From Gemmata massiliana (GTDB lineage Bacteria > Planctomycetota > Planctomycetia > Gemmatales > Gemmataceae), in contig HG799473.1 in assembly GCA_000531095.1 (NCBI GenBank), forward strand, positions 1-64,000: a DNA stretch of 64,000 nucleotides. The letters are read 5' to 3'. Shown here one piece after another: positions 8,139 through 13,282 of the stretch. The position numbers and the translations under genes are program-made. The notes beneath the pieces are model-generated. The model worked only from the letters and a program-made list of their open reading frames with translations. It was not told the origin of the DNA and did not search any database. Each line of letters begins with the position of its first letter. The stretch's first letter is position 1.

Positions 8139-8801
8139 CTATTCCTTCCCCAACACCAGATCAACGACCCAGCACCCGCGCACGTGCGGCCCCGAACCGC
8201 GGCAGTGGTCGAGCACCTCGGCGCTGTCACAGCCGGCGTCCTGGAGCGCATCTCCCAGAATGGGCATCGCGCCGAAGTCCCGCGCCTCGTACATCTGCGC
8301 CGCGAGCGCAACGGCGGTGGAGATGCGCCACGAAGGGGGGCAGGTGACCGGGCGGAAGAAGTTGCCGAAGTGGTCTCGAAGGAGGTCGCGCTGGGCCGCC
8401 TGGTTCTGTTCTTGTTCGCCCCACGAAGTGCAACGGGCGGCGGTGACCGCGTGACTGATGTACTTCCGGTCCGCTGCGGGCTGCAGGAGCGACATTGCGA
8501 CCGCCTGGACCGCGAAACCCACCGATGCCTCGATTCTCGGCCCGCCCGTCCAGTCGTGTCGGTCCAGCCACGTCGTGACCGTGTTCCACAACGTGTCCAC
8601 CTCCATTCCCCAGGCGCGACCATCCGAATATTGCTCCCCGTTCTCGATTGCCCGGTGACAGTATTCTTCAGGCAGAAGGTTCGACACGAGACGACAGCAC
8701 GCGCACACGAACAGTCGTTGCTTTCGCTCGCTCGTCTGATTGGCCACGAACCGCAGCATCGCTACCGGGTCGTCACACGCGAGCCATTCGGCTTCGGTCA
8801 T
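8139..8801 (-). CDS. Gemmata paralog family protein (MTEAEWLA / GCWVVDLVLGKE)
   Basis: 220 residues and intact. It starts MTEAEWLACDDPVAML, has a Cys pair (FVCACCRLV) near 50, a variable Ala-rich helical middle, and the family C-terminus: LLRDHFGNFFRP (near 140), QMYEARDFGAMPILGDALQDAG and HVRGCWVVDLVLGKE at the end. Other copies in this window are at 2054, 9321, 10073, 11904, 18623 and 62126. The N-terminal block resembles TIGR02996 of Gemmata. No enzyme motif or signal peptide is visible, so it is likely cytoplasmic. Upstream it has the conserved leader and a degenerate TTTCACCGCAGAG repeat. Confidence 0.8.
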   Translation of the reverse strand: MTEAEWLACDDPVAMLRFVANQTSERKQRLFVCACCRLVSNLLPEEYCHRAIENGEQYSDGRAWGMEVDTLWNTVTTWLDRHDWTGGPRIEASVGFAVQAVAMSLLQPAADRKYISHAVTAARCTSWGEQEQNQAAQRDLLRDHFGNFFRPVTCPPSWRISTAVALAAQMYEARDFGAMPILGDALQDAGCDSAEVLDHCRGSGPHVRGCWVVDLVLGKE

Positions 8802-8860
8802 CGGTCGCCCTCGTGAGCCGCTCCCGGCGCGACCGTTCCGGCGCCCGGTGCAAAGGTCCG
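8802..8860 (-). promoter_or_regulatory. Conserved leader of the Gemmata paralog genes
   Basis: Read on the minus strand, this leader has CACCGGGCGCCGGAACGGTC, then GGGAGCGGCTC, then GAGGGCGACCG up to the ATG. Very similar stretches precede the starts at 10892, 12534 and the remnant at 13282, and a shorter version precedes 2054. GAGG or GGAG near the end can serve as ribosome-binding site. It may carry promoter or RNA-structure signals, or it may simply be copied along with the gene. Confidence 0.5.
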
Positions 8861-8883
8861 AGGAAATCAGTCTGTAAAGACGT

Positions 8884-8990
8884 TTTCACCGCAGAGCACA
8901 CGAGAGCGCGGAGAAGAACACGAGCGGAACCGCGCAACCACCTTTGCTCTCCCTCCGCAATGAAATGCTCTTCGCGCTTCACCGCGGAGG
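8884..8990. repeat. Degenerate TTTCACCGCAGAG palindrome
   Basis: TTTTCACCGCAGAG begins at 8884 and decayed partners follow (CTCCGCAATGAAA, then CTTCACCGCGGAGG). It is the same repeat class as 6840-6932 but eroded. It lies about 80 bp upstream of the gene at 8139-8801. Confidence 0.55.
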
Positions 8991-8994
8991 CACG

Positions 8995-9086
8995 GCTAAC
9001 ATTGGCTAACATTCTGGGCCGACAGGGGCACGAACCTTCATTCCCCCCAGGGAAAACGCACCTCTCCCCGCGCGCCGGCTAACATT
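8995..9086. repeat. GCTAACATT double-motif repeat, copy A
   Basis: GCTAACATT occurs at 8995-9003 and 9005-9013 (10-bp spacing) and again at 9078-9086. The 64 bases between align with the same interval of copy B at 18289-18380 (shared ACGAACCTTCA or CCGAACCTTCA and CTCCCCGCG). A further shared block (CATCAATACCAGTAGTGAAAAT here) lies about 150 bp on. It sits on the 3' side of a family gene. Confidence 0.7.
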
Positions 9087-9320
9087 CGCGACACGAACCG
9101 CCCGATTCCCACCCGCGGAGCGAGCGGTTGACTTCCGGTGTACGCGCGCGTCTTCGTAGAAGGAGATCATTCCCACTCGGGACCACACTTGCGCGCACCG
9201 CTCCTCGCGGCATTATACCCACATCAAGAATACGCCATCAATACCAGTAGTGAAAATAAATACAAATTCCATTTTCGCACCCGCCGCCTGCGCACGGGAT
9301 GCGCCCGCGAATCCCGCGCG

Positions 9321-10070
9321 TTACTCCTGGCCGAGCACGAGGTCCACGACCCAGCACCCGCGCACGTGCGGGCCCTCGCTCCGGCAGTGATCGAGCACCT
9401 CGGCGCTCTCGCACCCCGCGTCCTGGAGCGCGTCCGCCAGGATCGGCATCCCACTGAACTCGCGCGTTTCGTACATCTGGAGTGCCACGGCGCGAGCGGT
9501 GGAGGTGCGCCATTTCCGAGAAAACGCGACGGGGCGAAACGGGTTCCCGAAGATGTCGCGCAGGAAGTCGGCTTGCACCGCGAGTTCGGTCGGGTCGGGC
9601 GGCAGCACCAGCCTCCCGATCAGGTCGACATTTGGTTCAAGTCCGCAGTCGGCCGCGCGGAGACAGGCCTTCGCGCTCCCCGCGGCGCGGTAAGCCAGCG
9701 CCGCCTGCGTGACCCTCTTTCTTGTGCAACTCCAAACTGCGCTGCTCCCGAATACGCGCGCTGCGGCCTGAAACTCGGCTGGCTGGTACGTCCAGGGCAC
9801 GCGCGTAACGGGATTGTTCACGCGACCGCCCTGGAGTCGCACCTGCCGCGCTCGCAACAGCGATTCGCGAAGCCCGGGCTCCGCGTGCAGTTCCAGGCAG
9901 TCGAGCGCGTCGGTGTCCGCGACATCCAGCACGTCCCCGACGCGGCGGCAGCACGCGATTGCGAACTGCCGGTACCTCTCGTCCGAGGCGGCCCGGCTGC
10001 GCGAGAGAGTGAACAGCACGTCGAGCATATCCGAAGGGTCTTCGCACGCCAGCCAGTCCGCTTCGGTCAT
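9321..10070 (-). CDS. Gemmata paralog family protein
   Basis: About 249 residues, intact, starting MTEADWLACEDPSDML. It has the Cys pair in FAIACCRRVGDVLD, a longer middle section than its sisters (including VPWTYQPAEFQAAARVF), and the conserved end FLRDIFGNPFRPVAFS, MPILADALQDAG, EVLDHCRSEGPHVRGCWV and a final GQE. The gene starts 2 bp after the stop of the upstream sister (10073-10892), so the two are a tandem pair, probably co-transcribed. Function unknown. The ATG at 10070 was chosen because every sister begins MTEAEW or similar; a longer frame exists but overlaps the upstream gene. Confidence 0.8.
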   Translation of the reverse strand: MTEADWLACEDPSDMLDVLFTLSRSRAASDERYRQFAIACCRRVGDVLDVADTDALDCLELHAEPGLRESLLRARQVRLQGGRVNNPVTRVPWTYQPAEFQAAARVFGSSAVWSCTRKRVTQAALAYRAAGSAKACLRAADCGLEPNVDLIGRLVLPPDPTELAVQADFLRDIFGNPFRPVAFSRKWRTSTARAVALQMYETREFSGMPILADALQDAGCESAEVLDHCRSEGPHVRGCWVVDLVLGQE

Positions 10071-10072
10071 CC

Positions 10073-10892
10073 TCACCCCTTGTCGAGCACCAAATCCACA
10101 ACCCAGCACCCGCGGACATGGACACCCGGCGCGCGACAGTGGTTCAGCACGTCCGTGTTATCGCACCCGGCGTCTTGGAGTGCGTCCCCCAGAATCGGCA
10201 TCGCGCCGAACTCGCGCGACTCGTACATCTGCTGCGCCAGCGCGACCGCGGTGGAGGTGCGAACTCCGTATAGCATACAGAATACGAGGCTATCGCGCCG
10301 AACTCGCGCGACTCGTACATCTGCTGCGCCAGCGCGACGCGGTGGAGGTGCGCCACACGGGGGAGAACGTGACGGAGCGAAAAGGATTACCGAACACCTC
10401 GCGGAACAGGGCGCATTGGGCCGCTTCCTCTGCCGCCCGCGCGCCGTGGTACGCGAAATTCTCGACGCGGCTCCGGTCCGAATCTTCACCGAACGGATCG
10501 AAGTCCGGCGGCCGCGTGCGCCCCGCGGCCGCGCACCCGACGGCTTCGGACGCGGCGGCGCAATTGATGATGGCCTGGCAGCACGGGTTCTCCTCATCAC
10601 ACGCGCACGCGGTAATCACCCGCTGGCGCGCGGCACCGACCTCCTCCCAGGTTCCGTGCCCTTCGATCAGGCGCTCGTATGCCTCCACCGCCTCGCGCCC
10701 GGGAGCTTCGATCAGGTGGAAGATGCGCCGCCAGCACGCTGCCGCGTGCAGGTAGGATTTCCGGTTCCACTGTAACAGGTTCTGGTGCGACGTCGGCGCG
10801 CGTCTCCCCGGGCGCGGGGCGCGCGTGAGCGCCTCCAGTTGTTCGGTCATGCGGCTCAGGTCTTCGCACGCGAGCCATTCGGTTTCGGTCAT
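10073..10892 (-). CDS. Gemmata paralog family protein, split by a linker artefact
   Basis: Starts MTETEWLACEDLSRM. The first frame runs to FREVFGNPFRSVTFSPVWRTST and is then knocked out of frame. The family end (TAVALAQQMYESREFGAM, then CWVVDLVLDKG) continues in another frame to 10073. The break coincides with a 61-bp direct duplication (10200-10261 and 10292-10352, the second lacking one base) on both sides of a loxP-like block at 10262-10293. Collapsing the duplication gives an uninterrupted gene of normal length. The gene is therefore probably intact in the genome. Family function is unknown. It has the conserved leader, and the start is the ATG at 10892. Confidence 0.75.
10262..10293. other. 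Degenerate loxP-like block, probable mate-pair linker
   Basis: Of 32 bases, 27 match loxP, including the GTATAGCATACA centre. It is flanked by a 61-bp duplication of the host gene. The 454 paired-end protocol uses a loxP linker, and residual linker in assemblies gives this kind of insertion. It should be treated as artefact, not biology. Confidence 0.7.
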
Positions 10893-11009
10893 CGGGCGCC
10901 CTCCGGAACCGCCTCCAGCATGATCGGGCGTGGCGACCGGTGCAAGCCCCGGCGCCCTTCGGTGATTGCGCCGCTTGCTCCGGCTGTGCGTTCGGGTATG
11001 CTGTGTTTT

Positions 11010-11284
11010 GTTCCCGTGGTCGGTTTAGCTCGTCGCTCTGCGACAGGCTGATGTTGCGTCAGCCGAGCACACTCCGCCACACGCACCGCGGGGAACACTG
11101 TTCCAGCACCGCTATCGAGCCGACGCCACCGGGTCGGTGTGCGTTCTGGAACAACCCCGGAATCGTGGTTCCGCACACCGACCCGGTGGCGTCGGCTCGG
11201 CGTTGCCGTGAGCGTTCCGCGCATCTCAGGTCGGGAAGTAAACACCGCGGGAACACCTCGGGCCAGGGATTGTTCCCTGGCCCG
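11010..11284 (+). ncRNA. Retron msr-msd-like structured RNA, copy 1
   Basis: An outer stem pairs GTTCCCGTGGT..GTTTA (11010-11027) with TAAACACCGCGGGAAC (11239-11254). Right after the 5' arm come GC and a small hairpin GTCGC-TCT-GCGAC, then a second hairpin GGCTGA-loop-TCAGCC whose loop holds GTTGCG. Then there is a perfect 28-bp inverted repeat (11116-11143 with 11172-11199). A GC-rich terminator-like hairpin follows (11259-11284). This order matches the retron plan: a1, branch G in TTAGC, msr hairpins, long msd hairpin, a2. Copy 2 at 12885-13096 keeps the outer parts but has a different long stem, so structure rather than sequence is conserved. No reverse transcriptase gene was seen in the window. 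The retron reading is inference. Confidence 0.55.
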
Positions 11285-11378
11285 GGTCGTTTCATGCAGA
11301 AGGAAATCGGCTAAAGCGGCTACTGTGCCGCGCGTCGGGCCGATCGGGTACGAGTGAGATCCCGCCGCCGAGCGCCCC

Positions 11379-11907
11379 TTACGAACCAGTGCGGCGCATG
11401 ACGTCCCAATTGTGGACGCTGATGCCGAGCACCGGGCTCACTCCCCGGTTCTTCGCTCTCGTGTGCCACGAACGCGATACCCGTTGGAGCGTTGGGGGAC
11501 CGCTCCGAATCCGGGTAGTACATCTCGTCGCCGGCGTCGTAGAACAACGGGAACAACGATAGTGCCTCCCGGAGCGGGCTACCGATCCCGATTCGCCCGA
11601 GCGCCCGCCCGCGGTACCCCTCGAACACCCAGATGCCATACAAGTCGCCGGGGGCATTGAAGTCGAAGCGAACCACATCCGCTCCGAAGTACACGGTCGT
11701 GTTTTCGGAGCCCGGCAGCGCGGGGTTCCGAACAACCAATATTCCGGTGTTCTGATCGATCGCACGTCTCAAAGGAAAACCCGGTTGGTACCCGACGTGG
11801 GTGGCCGCACGTAGTAACGCGCCGCACTCCGAAAGCCGAGTCCCGATCCGCTACCCGGCCGCGAAGAGCCCCGGGTACAGGTCCGCGTCCAAATCAATGA
11901 GTGTCAT
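11379..11907 (-). pseudogene. Hypothetical protein, broken frame
   Basis: Reads MTLIDLDADLYPGLFAAG, a TAG stop, then on in the same frame through RIGTRLSECGALL, PLRRAIDQNTGILVVRN, YFGADVVRFDF and LYGIWVFEGYRGRALG to IAFVAHESEEPG. A shift near the C run at 11443-11446 then leads to SPVLGISVHNWDVMRRTGS and a stop at 11379. Taking one C out restores that end. The ATG overlaps the stop of the upstream family gene (ATGA), so the two are translationally coupled. Family not recognised. The TAG may be a real mutation; the shift may be a homopolymer error. Confidence 0.5.
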
Positions 11908-12534
11908 CCGGCGAGCCTCCGGCTTGCATAGAACGCGCGCACGTGCGGCCCGTCACCGCGGCAGTGGTTCAGCACGTCGGTGTTGTCGCAGCCCGCGTCC
12001 TGGAGCGCGTCGGCCAGAATCGGCATCGCGCCGAACGCGCGCGACTCGTACATCTGCTGCGCGAGCGCAACGGCGGTGGACGTGCGCCATTCCGGGGGGG
12101 AAGGTGATGGGGCGGAACGGGTTCCCGAAGAGATCGCGGAGGAACGAGGTGCGAGCCGCGGTGACGTGGCGCTCGATGGCCCTCGACCCGTGCGGCAGAT
12201 CAATCAGTGGCGGACACGGGCGCCGTTCGGTGTACTCCACGACGAACTGTGCGAGTCGCGCGGCGTAGTCGACCGTCCTACTCAGCAGGTATTCGGATGA
12301 TTCCTCGTAGTAGCGCGCCTCCGCGCCGCCCGTTCTCGCCCATGCATGATCTCGGTCCGCGAACTCCTCAGCTACTCCGATGGCCTCGAGCGGGGACTCG
12401 CTCACGCGCAATCGCGAACAAAAGCGCCGGAGCGCGCAATCGTAGAGCGCGAGCTTACGGCCGCTCGCTCGGCCGCGGAGTGCGGTGAGCAGGTCGCGCG
12501 GTTCTTCGGACACCAGCCACTGGGCTTCGGTCAT
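11904..12534 (-). pseudogene. Gemmata paralog family gene with frameshift and altered C-terminus
   Basis: Starts MTEAQWLVSEEPRDLL and follows the family to SFLRDLFGNPFRPITF, where a run of seven Gs (12094-12100 on the plus strand) shifts the frame. One base fewer gives PEWRTSTAVALAQQMYESRA and MPILADALQDAGCDNTDVL. The last part differs from all sisters: after GPHVRA it reads FYASRRLAG and stops, instead of GCWVVDLVLGKE. The stop overlaps the start of the next gene (ATGA). So the frameshift may be a sequencing error, but the changed end is probably real, perhaps a deletion that fused the gene to its neighbour. Confidence 0.65.
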
Positions 12535-12693
12535 CGGGCGCCCTCTGGAGTCACTCCCGTGATGCCCGCTCCGGCGCCCGGGGCGAGCCCGCGGTTCACC
12601 AAAATAAATTAAACGATCTGGCTATCGTCAATTGGTTGTGCGATGATAAATGTGCCATGCCAGTTTCGGGACGCTCATCATAAGGGGACGGGC

Positions 12694-12876
12694 ATGACAG
12701 AGTACGAACGACTTTCTCTTCAACTCCAGGCGACCCTGGTGAGCGGACTGAGCCTCATGGTCGTTCAGTCGAAGTTGCAGTCCTCGGACGAGAACGCGGG
12801 GTACGTGCAACAAGTGCTGAACTGGCAGAGCCAAGTCGCGCGGGTGCTGGAAGGGCTCAAGTCGGTCCTCGGGTAG
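12694..12876 (+). CDS. Small hypothetical protein, 60 residues
   Basis: Starts MTEYERLSLQLQATLV at an ATG preceded by AAGGGGACGGGC, a fair ribosome-binding site. The protein is mostly predicted helix with heptad-like Leu/Val spacing (LVSGLSLMVVQSKLQ, then YVQQVLNWQSQVARVLEGL), so it may form a coiled coil or a small helical bundle. No membrane segment and no Cys. It ends 8 bp before the retron-like RNA copy 2 on the same strand, which makes a transcriptional link possible. Upstream is the conserved leader of the divergent family gene. I do not know the family. Confidence 0.6.
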   Translation: MTEYERLSLQLQATLVSGLSLMVVQSKLQSSDENAGYVQQVLNWQSQVARVLEGLKSVLG

Positions 12877-12884
12877 TAAACGGG

Positions 12885-13096
12885 GTTCCCGTGGTCGTGT
12901 TTAGCTCGTCGTAGAGCGATGGCGACGTTGCGCCGCCCGCGCACACTCTTGGGGAAAATCCGAAGTCTCGGGGCGAACCGTTGGTCCGTTCGAGTTTCGT
13001 ATGTGTTTGTGCTTCGGATTTCCTCCCAAAGTGGGTGCCAGGTCGGGAAGTAGACACCACGGGGACACCACGGGCCGGGGAGCGTTTCCCGGCCCG
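12885..13096 (+). ncRNA. Retron msr-msd-like structured RNA, copy 2
   Basis: Outer stem: GTTCCCGTGGTCGTGTTTA (12885-12903) with TAGACACCACGGGGAC (13051-13066). Then GC and a first hairpin CGTCG-TAGAG-CGATG, and a second hairpin GGCGAC..GCGCC again holding GTTGCG. A long imperfect stem of about 22 bp follows (12944-12965 with 13012-13033). GGTCGGGAAGTA precedes the 3' arm in both copies. A terminator-like hairpin CGGGCCGGG/CCCGGCCCG ends the element (13071-13096). Compared with copy 1, both small hairpins change by compensating pairs. It lies 8 bp after the small gene 12694-12876. Confidence 0.55.
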
Positions 13097-13156
13097 CTGT
13101 CGTTGAAATCGGATGGAGTGCTTTGTGACCGATCGTCGGGCCGTTAGCGAGACGGG

Positions 13157-13282
13157 TCAGACACGTCGCGTTCCACGAAGTGCCGCGGCGGTAACGAGTC
13201 CCGGAGTGCCGCCCGCGCCCTTACGAACGTGGCGGCGTAGCGTTTCCGGATCTTCGCGTGCGGGGCGCTCGACTTTGGTCAC
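13157..13282 (-). pseudogene. 5' remnant of the Gemmata paralog family
   Basis: A 41-codon frame starting MTKVERPAREDPETL, which lines up with MTEAEWLACEDPxxML. The bases upstream are the conserved family leader (GGGCGCCGGAACCGTCATGC, then GGGAGCCGCTCC and GGGCGCCCG). After about 15 codons the similarity ends. A decayed copy is the likely origin. Confidence 0.55.

What the first reader, a model, noticed from the sequence alone, without database searches (positions are those of the whole stretch)
11010..13096. Two solo retron msr-msd-like RNAs without a reverse transcriptase
Seen: two elements (11010-11284 and 12885-13096) share a closing stem (GTTCCCGTGGT..GTTTA with TAAACACC..GGGAAC), TTTAGC right after its 5' arm, two small hairpins (the second with GTTGCG in the loop), a long central hairpin and GGTCGGGAAGTA before the 3' arm, plus a GC-rich 3' hairpin. 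The small hairpins differ by compensating pairs, and the long hairpin is unrelated in sequence (28-bp perfect in one, ~22-bp imperfect in the other). Known: retron RNAs have this order (a1, branch G in TTAGC, msr, msd, a2). Solo msDNA-like repeats without RT have been described in myxobacteria. Inference: a retron-derived, RT-less repeat family in Gemmataceae, possibly copied in trans. This is the strongest candidate for an undescribed system here.
Basis: partly seen in the sequence, partly recalled or inferred. Interest (0 to 1): 0.87.

Follow-up and report, generated by a model that had tools for sequence, protein, structure and literature searches.

The report
Many variable retron RNAs, one transcriptase
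The two elements belong to a family of structured RNAs, about thirty in this genome, that appear to be templates for one distant retron reverse transcriptase; most carry a different but perfectly paired 28-base-pair stem, as if the bacterium kept a set of interchangeable DNA probes.

Summary
Element 1 is one of 31 model-detected copies in this 9.27-Mb Gemmataceae genome. Model R1, built from own-genome copies, hits 30 of 95 family genomes.

The elements are not RT-less at genome scale. Their partner is a type XIII retron operon (HEAT-ARM, HEAT-ARM, SWIM, RT), with one copy just upstream of it. In the family 29 genomes have both RNA and RT, 1 only RNA, 2 only RT, 63 neither. Of 18 genomes I picked for having this RT, 18 have the RNA (14 not seen before). 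In Nannocystis poenicansa and Minicystis rosea the RNA lies megabases from the RT, so supply in trans is plausible.

The new part is the stem. Paralogous stems are unrelated in sequence yet paired. At orthologous loci they are near-identical, with compensated changes, or replaced wholesale. They are enriched in internal palindromes. The SWIM protein is predicted to carry a sliding-clamp fold.

Best reading: trans-acting retron templates making a repertoire of msDNA probes. Reverse transcription and probe function are inferred, not shown.

The parts
10975..11002 (+). promoter-like TTGCTC - 16 nt - TATGCT upstream of element 1
   Evidence: sequence; a loose motif of this kind is found in the 63 nt upstream of 25 of 29 own-genome copies versus 0-5 of 29 in six control windows (motif chosen after seeing the sequences, position not fixed)
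11010..11020 (+). element 1, a1 (5' arm of closing stem)
11024..11029 (+). TTTAGC; G11028 is the candidate priming (branch) guanosine
   Evidence: TTAGC invariant in the 28-copy alignment and the T before it in 90% or more; TAGC invariant in 28 RNAs from several phyla; AGC priming motif per PMC6868368 (passages)
11028..11068 (+). msr domain: enclosing stem GCTC/GAGC, hairpin 1 (11032-11044), hairpin 2 (11046-11064)
   Evidence: covariation, 98.6% of cells paired, 0 of 500 shuffles
11087..11111 (+). 5' strand of the conserved msd base helix (approximate limits)
   Evidence: consensus fold with both-side changes
11116..11143 (+). variable stem, arm 1 (28 nt)
11144..11171 (+). conserved apical cap (CTGGAACAACCCCG..ATCGTGGTTC)
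11172..11199 (+). variable stem, arm 2, 100% complementary to arm 1
11200..11226 (+). 3' strand of the base helix (approximate limits)
11227..11254 (+). conserved tail CAGGTCGGGAAGT and a2 (11239-11254)
11260..11283 (+). terminator-like GC hairpin
   Evidence: perfect hairpin of 7 bp or more downstream of 25 of 29 own copies versus 2 of 29 in a control window
12885..12895 (+). element 2, a1
12900..12905 (+). element 2, TTTAGC; candidate priming G 12904
12939..13038 (+). element 2, long imperfect hairpin (arms 12939-12965 and 13012-13038); its stem sequence resembles that of copy L028 in opposite orientation
13039..13066 (+). element 2, conserved tail and a2
   Evidence: 84% identical to element 1 over 58 nt
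13072..13096 (+). element 2, terminator-like GC hairpin

Best explanation
The two elements are trans-acting template RNAs (msr-msd) of a type XIII retron. SHOWN by sequence comparison: they belong to one conserved RNA family; that family tracks one RT and its operon (two HEAT-ARM proteins, a SWIM protein with a predicted clamp fold, RT_XIII); most own-genome copies have promoter-like and terminator-like sequences; regular copies share a frame (a1/a2, branch-G motif, two msr hairpins, base helix, apical cap) and differ in a stem of about 28 bp that stays paired, is replaced as a cassette at otherwise conserved loci, and is rich in internal palindromes. INFERRED: (1) each copy is transcribed separately and primed and reverse transcribed in trans by the single RT_XIII (about 0.8); (2) this gives a mixed pool of msDNAs with a common handle and different duplex stems, held by the clamp-fold SWIM and HEAT-ARM proteins (about 0.5); (3) the palindromic stems are recognition sites for sequence-specific DNA-binding or DNA-modifying proteins, most likely of phages or other invaders, so that binding or modification of one probe triggers the shared complex (about 0.35); (4) stems are reshuffled between loci by recombination, possibly with msDNA as donor (about 0.4).
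For: Co-occurrence in 95 family genomes: 29 both, 1 RNA only, 2 RT only, 63 neither; Fisher p = 6e-21, genomes not phylogenetically independent. Two same-genus genomes lack both. The L035-type RT is not matched: six genomes with it have no RNA hit. 18 of 18 RT_XIII genomes carry the RNA; 14 were new. RNA upstream of HEAT1 in 10 of these 18 (in one, divergently), within 1 kb of the RT in 2, and near neither within about 1.5 kb in 6. The complete chromosomes of Nannocystis poenicansa and Minicystis rosea have RNA and RT about 3.4 and 1.9 Mb apart. RT alignment keeps NAxxH and VTG (motif names recalled). Consensus fold of 28 RNAs: 47 of 66 pairs with both-side changes. Eleven orthologous pairs with a kept stem: 334 base pairs, 6 changed, 4 of them compensated; other stems wholly replaced between conserved flanks. 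Palindrome score of 70 stems 5.27 versus 3.52 sd 0.12 column-dealt, 0 of 300; mirror-repeat control flat. Clamp fold Z 14.8, rmsd 2.7 A over 214 residues. msDNA stems as sensors of phage proteins are reported for Kva2 (PMC13405049, passages) and for Eco8 and Ec86 (PMC13158370, part 1 of 2).
Against: No transcript, msDNA or phage data. RNA without a full RT_XIII ortholog in G032, RT without RNA in G029 and G030 (fragmented assemblies). Stems gave no match: exact 20-22-mers of four stems are in 0 IMG/VR contigs, one of them also in 0 genome contigs; two stem palindromes occur exactly in the own genome only in their own element, and their 15 one-mismatch sites all lie over open frames of 128 aa or more. 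No catalytic effector was identified in the operon. In the own genome HEAT2 reads in two frames, so this strain's operon may be damaged or misassembled. Palindromes and perfect arms could come from mutation bias rather than selection. Not every stem is regular: 18 of 108 parsed sequences failed the stem filter, among them disrupted copies, window element 2's stem type (L028) and at least one spurious hit (L155).
Confidence: 0.7

Rival explanations
1. Non-autonomous selfish repeats: the RT_XIII copies these RNAs and the copies spread by retrotransposition or recombination, like a bacterial SINE, with no benefit to the host.
For: 7 to 37 dispersed copies in 17 of 19 same-genus genomes, only 1-6 elsewhere; disrupted copies (L008 first copy, L023, L024, L033); copies sit at rearrangement points, for example L010 whose two flanks match two neighbouring G009 copies. 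Partial msDNA-like copies in Nannocystis exedens are named as likely retrotransposed in two titles of the reference list of PMC6868368.
Against: Promoter-like and terminator-like sequences on 25 of 29 copies each, covariation, compensated stem changes and stems kept in length but exchanged in sequence point to selection on function. One copy is tied to the operon in 10 of 18 genomes of several phyla.
Confidence: 0.2
2. Perfect and palindromic stems are a by-product of mutation: template switching at inverted repeats (quasi-palindrome correction) homogenises the arms, and the stem is only a spacer or grip of fixed length, for example for the clamp-fold protein.
For: Stem length is nearly constant (about 28 bp) while sequence is free; inverted repeats are enriched at every spacer 0-12, not at one spacing as for a single protein; clamp folds encircle duplexes without regard to sequence (fold; property: general knowledge).
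Against: Kept stems differ less than their flanks (10 changed bases in 668, versus aligned flanks mostly 89-96% identical, two at 68 and 77%); but these pairs were selected for having kept the stem. When stems differ otherwise they are wholly replaced; drift would give intermediates.
Confidence: 0.35
3. Ordinary structured sRNAs or DNA-level palindromic elements unrelated to reverse transcription.
For: No Rfam family matches; no expression data.
Against: Invariant AGC after a1, retron-like two-hairpin msr, near-perfect tracking of RT_XIII, RNA within 1 kb of the RT in two distant genomes.
Confidence: 0.06

Closest known systems
Type XIII retron (PADLOC RT_XIII, HEAT-ARM_XIII, SWIM_XIII; classification of Mestre 2020, paper not held)
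   Same: Same RT, HEAT-ARM and SWIM proteins by profile; RNA family present in 18 of 18 RT_XIII genomes tested.
   Different: RNA lies upstream of a 12-kb operon or far away in most genomes looked at, rarely beside the RT; in the window's genus it is amplified to 7-37 copies in 17 of 19 genomes, with different stems. Whether Mestre 2020 described this RNA could not be checked.
msDNA-like repeats of Nannocystis exedens (Lampson and Rice 1997; Lampson 2002; only titles seen in a reference list)
   Same: Chromosomal msDNA-like copies; N. exedens DSM 71 itself carries RT_XIII (L332) and two copies of this RNA.
   Different: The titles speak of repetitive or partial, possibly retrotransposed copies; here most copies are complete units with exchanged stems. 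Whether they are the same repeats was not tested.
Retron-Eco1/Ec86, Eco8 and Kva2
   Same: a1/a2, priming G, recognition loop in the second msr hairpin (UUU with a free first base for Eco1, PMC11754653 passages; here GUU), msDNA stem as sensor (PMC13405049, PMC13158370).
   Different: Described with one template per RT and one stem.
Diversity-generating retroelements and CRISPR arrays (analogy only)
   Same: Variable sequence inside a constant frame, RT-linked (DGR) or in a repertoire (CRISPR).
   Different: Not searched for here: template/variable repeat pairs, adenine mutagenesis. Copies are dispersed, not arrays; no match outside the family was found for the few stems tested.

Membership tests
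Retron ncRNA (msr-msd) | a1/a2 closing stem with AGC-type priming guanosine just after a1 | tested here: met
   motif per PMC6868368
Retron ncRNA (msr-msd) | msr stem-loops followed by msd hairpin, supported by covariation | tested here: met
Retron ncRNA (msr-msd) | cognate retron RT in the genome | tested here: met
   29 of 30 RNA-bearing family genomes; 18 of 18 (chosen for the RT)
Classical retron cassette | RT gene in the same cassette as the msr-msd | tested here: not met
   window copies: no RT hit of the own genome is on their contig (RT hits are on C2, C5, C7, C8; window is C12). Of 18 genomes 10 have the RNA upstream of HEAT1, 2 within 1 kb of the RT, 6 near neither. The window copies are therefore called trans-acting templates, not retron cassettes
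Retron | branched msDNA with 2'-5' link | not testable with these tools
   needs nucleic acid extraction or sequencing
Retron RT | NAxxH and VTG motifs and YADD catalytic box | tested here: met
   alignment of 8 RTs; motif names recalled
Type XIII retron | RT_XIII with HEAT-ARM_XIII and SWIM_XIII neighbours | tested here: met
   PADLOC 534 bits for the own RT; 1135, 2040 and 627 bits for the Limnoglobus operon proteins; operon order by tblastn, own genome included
Rfam RNA family | match above gathering score | tested here: not met
   0 matches in the window; five matches at E up to 10 over 10900-13200, all far below gathering scores
Sliding clamp fold (SWIM_XIII residues 47-353) | structural match to PCNA/9-1-1 clamps | tested here: met
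   AF2 mean pLDDT 82; Foldseek 3.5e-7; Z 14.8, rmsd 2.7 A, 214 residues. Fold of a predicted model only; function not tested

The most novel reading that the evidence does not exclude
A reverse-transcriptase immune repertoire: one type XIII RT complex is programmed in trans by dozens of RNA loci, each giving an msDNA with the same handle and a different palindromic duplex that acts as a probe or bait for a different sequence-specific DNA-binding or DNA-modifying protein; the stems are swapped between loci as cassettes, so the repertoire changes faster than the genome.
Probability: 0.27. Interest if true: 0.97.

Novelty: new variant of a known kind. Interest (0 to 1): 0.88.

Why it matters
In the papers seen here retrons are one RT with one RNA in one cassette. 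A retron that serves tens of unlinked RNAs with interchangeable stems would change that picture, give the type XIII system a template and a testable logic, and offer a natural multiplexed ssDNA producer for biotechnology. It also makes an open question testable: what msDNA stem sequence is for.

Tried and rejected
Rejected: (1) 'no RT in the genome'. (2) tRNA/attachment-site origin of one stem (L021 resembles a T-arm): own-genome matches of its hairpin outside the RNA family are short or imperfect, and ARAGORN found no tRNA at the two sites I fetched. (3) Host operator origin: two stem palindromes searched with one mismatch, exact hits only in their own element; 8 and 7 one-mismatch sites versus 2 and 0 for the reversed pattern, all 15 over open frames of 128 aa or more in some frame; inconclusive, two stems only. 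(4) Viral origin: exact 20-22-mers of four stems, 0 hits in IMG/VR; one of them 0 hits in genome contigs, which may leave out near relatives. (5) RT L035 type as partner: absent from many RNA-bearing genomes, present in six without RNA hit. (6) RNA within 10 kb of the RT as a rule: R1 finds it in 3 of 80 RT loci at E below 0.001; a loop-plus-arms scan confirmed two, not the third (L340, opposite strand); the 10-kb flank is too short for the usual 12-kb distance. Two weak phylum hits (G134, G136, E 0.0035) were not verified. Insertion sites and target duplications were not tested. The HEAT1 model (pTM 0.50) was not searched.

Counts to read with care: family searches use stricter filters and score 40 candidates per genome, so copy numbers are lower bounds. 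RT orthologs were called at 60% identity or more over most of the protein, a gap seen in the list (61%, then 46%); a 111-residue fragment in G005 (66%) was left out. The 18 genomes were picked by me from 80 loci; four were already known positives. The parser gave 108 distinct sequences, at least one spurious (L155); 90 passed the stem filter, which then used 69 stems; one search used 70 with a slightly different filter, in which at least one near-duplicate pair (L005/L204) slipped through (seen). The 11 kept-stem pairs were selected by me. For alignment A5 three RNAs could not be cut out (L360, L306, L264) and I left out three of the 31 that could (L250 and second copies in L092 and L220). The promoter motif was written after seeing the sequences.

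Papers: PMC6868368, PMC8867640, PMC11754653 and PMC13405049 were seen as passages; PMC12548924 was searched for six terms without a hit; PMC13158370 part 1 of 2; others only as search listings. Mestre 2020 and a 2021 review are not held. I found nothing in print on this family with searches of open-licence papers; that is a limited library.
Full report
1. Observation. Element 1 folds far better than shuffled sequence (z -11.4), element 2 moderately (z -3.4). Neither matches Rfam at gathering score. BLAST with element 1 gives 39 places in the own genome, self-matches and fragments included. An alignment of 28 heads shows an invariant TTAGC (the T before it in 90% or more), a hairpin 1 that varies with compensation (five of five pairs changed on both sides in some copies) and a hairpin 2 with an invariant GTTGCG in its loop; 98.6% of cells pair, 0 of 500 shuffles reach this.

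2. Distribution. Covariance model R1 (110 nt of the 5' half) finds 31 copies in the own genome (element 2 is not among them), and hits in 30 of 95 family genomes; in the window's genus 17 of 19 genomes have 7 to 37 copies, in other genera 1 to 6 where present. In 392 genomes drawn over the phylum, outside the own genome there are two clear hits (E 1.4e-13, 2.5e-8) and two weak, unverified ones.

3. The partner. The own genome has six RVT_1 proteins: a group II intron-like one, a DRT9 type and four retron types; all four of the latter score best against PADLOC RT_XIII (519, 355, 534 and 165 bits). The one with 534 bits (449 aa) has orthologs of 61% identity or more in 31 of 95 family genomes, 29 of which carry the RNA; the single RNA-only genome is G032, the RT-only genomes G029 and G030; p = 6e-21, with the caveat that genomes share ancestry. 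Two genomes of the same genus lack both. An RNA copy lies about 12 kb upstream of this RT on the same strand in 15 genomes read off the lists (G000, G006, G011, G013, G015, G016, G022, G045, G047, G051, G087, G088, G089, G092, G094). The space is filled by one operon: HEAT-ARM (about 1100 aa, with a sub-threshold BRCT match), HEAT-ARM (about 2100 aa), SWIM (about 615 aa, sub-threshold WGR and SWIM matches), RT. PADLOC scores are 1135, 2040 and 627 bits for the first three in Limnoglobus. This is the type XIII retron set.

4. Test outside the family. A search with an alignment of six RT_XIII sequences kept 80 loci from Planctomycetota, Myxococcota, Acidobacteriota, Gammaproteobacteria and others. 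In 18 genomes picked from these, R1 found the RNA in 18 (best E 1e-22 to 9e-6), one or two copies each; 14 were not known positives. The RNA is upstream of HEAT1 in 10 (divergent in one), within 1 kb after the RT in 2, and near neither within the roughly 1.5 kb held on each side in 6. On the complete chromosomes of Nannocystis poenicansa and Minicystis rosea, RNA and RT are about 3.4 and 1.9 Mb apart. Candidatus Uabimicrobium has the RNA 92 bp after the RT and the full operon. So the template need not be linked to the RT.

5. Common frame. An alignment of 28 full elements, 11 of them from the genomes outside the window's family by name or unassigned, gives 66 consensus pairs, 47 with changes on both sides: a1/a2, the TAGC motif, two msr hairpins, a base helix, the variable stem, and a conserved apical hairpin (AACCnCG..CGnGGTT). 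Own-genome copies have a promoter-like motif upstream in 25 of 29 (controls 0 to 5 of 29) and a perfect hairpin downstream in 25 of 29 (control 2 of 29), so most look like independent transcription units.

6. The variable stem. Of 108 distinct parsed sequences 90 have a stem of 27 bp or more with at most three mismatches, and paralogous stems are unrelated apart from a few shared ones. Orthologous loci in related genomes show two states. Either the stem is kept: in 11 such pairs chosen by me, 334 base pairs, 6 changed, 4 of them compensated on both sides, 1 G-C to G-T and 1 restored. Or it is replaced entirely while everything around stays: L011/L192 (flanks 92 and 96%, head 97%), L025/L217, L028/L200, L021/L207 (one flank) and others. 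Of the eight G000/G009 pairs in which both flanks match at 85% or more, five keep the stem and three have it replaced (my count). The same stem also appears at different loci (L006, L012 and L211; L011 and one L220 copy; L202 and L213), so stems travel between loci.

7. Palindromes. Stems contain internal inverted repeats far above chance: score 5.27 for 70 stems versus 3.52 (sd 0.12) when letters are dealt anew per position, 0 of 300; mirror repeats show no excess; 11 stems from other lineages show 4.50 versus 3.47 (sd 0.27), 0 of 300. Dinucleotide shuffles agree: 5.25 versus 4.19 (sd 0.12) for 69 stems, 21 of 69 at score 6 or more versus 6.5 on average and 13 at most in 200 shuffle sets. The excess exists at all spacers 0-12. 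Such dyads are what dimeric DNA-binding proteins, methyltransferases and nucleases recognise (general knowledge), but mutation bias at inverted repeats is not excluded.

8. Proteins. The SWIM protein model (mean pLDDT 82) matches PCNA and 9-1-1 clamps over residues 47-353 (Foldseek E 3.5e-7; Z 14.8, rmsd 2.7 A over 214 residues). A clamp would fit a duplex stem of fixed length; this is inference. No catalytic effector was recognised. HEAT1 was modelled with lower confidence (pTM 0.50) and not searched.

9. Mechanism. Shown: one RNA family, one RT operon, exchangeable stems. Inferred: reverse transcription in trans into a pool of msDNAs. Literature seen here says that msDNA stems are sensors: a phage helix-turn-helix protein binds the Kva2 stem (PMC13405049, passages); phage SSB acts on Eco8 msDNA and a phage methyltransferase on the Ec86 stem (PMC13158370, part 1). 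[quoted passage not shown] A set of different palindromic stems on one handle would extend the sensor idea to a repertoire. Against: no match of any tested stem to viral or host sequence (few stems tested), and no expression data.

10. Verdict. Whether the RNA was already described in the type XIII literature could not be checked.

Noticed in passing
L178:11714-13558 (Limnoglobus roseus) and orthologs: SWIM_XIII protein of type XIII retrons is predicted to contain a PCNA/9-1-1-like sliding-clamp fold (Z 14.8); one literature search for retron with sliding clamp or PCNA listed nothing on it among the 10 shown.
   Followed up: partly
L176 about 8428-8459 (G000:C8): The second HEAT-ARM gene of the own genome reads in two frames, while G009 and G011 give one alignment each; frameshift or assembly error. 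Described only.
   Followed up: no
window 12885-13066 and L028: Element 2 and copy L028 share a different, longer, imperfect stem (GAGTTTCGTATnTGTTT) in opposite orientation; the G009 ortholog of L028 has an ordinary 28-bp stem. A second stem class or an inserted hairpin.
   Followed up: partly
window 12695-12877: A 60-codon open frame (MTEYERLSLQLQ...) ends 7 nt before element 2; it may be co-transcribed with it.
   Followed up: no
window 8139-12534, minus strand: Several paralogous open frames starting MTEAEWLACDDP, MTEADWLACEDP, MTETEWLACEDL or MTEAQWLVSEEP lie around the two elements, with short duplicated blocks (for example near 10220-10345).
   Followed up: no
L038 (G000:C7:431437-432117): The own genome also encodes a DRT9-type reverse transcriptase (PADLOC Drt9, 548 bits) and a group II intron-like RT (L034).
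   Followed up: no
L345/L363, L349/L365, L362/L368, L111/L114: In Limnoglobus, Nannocystis, Thiolinea and G088 the RNA is a tandem pair of copies roughly 330-360 bp apart.
   Followed up: no
L347, L349, L350: Three Nannocystis species share the same stem sequence in one copy, unlike Gemmata, so stem turnover may differ between lineages.
   Followed up: no
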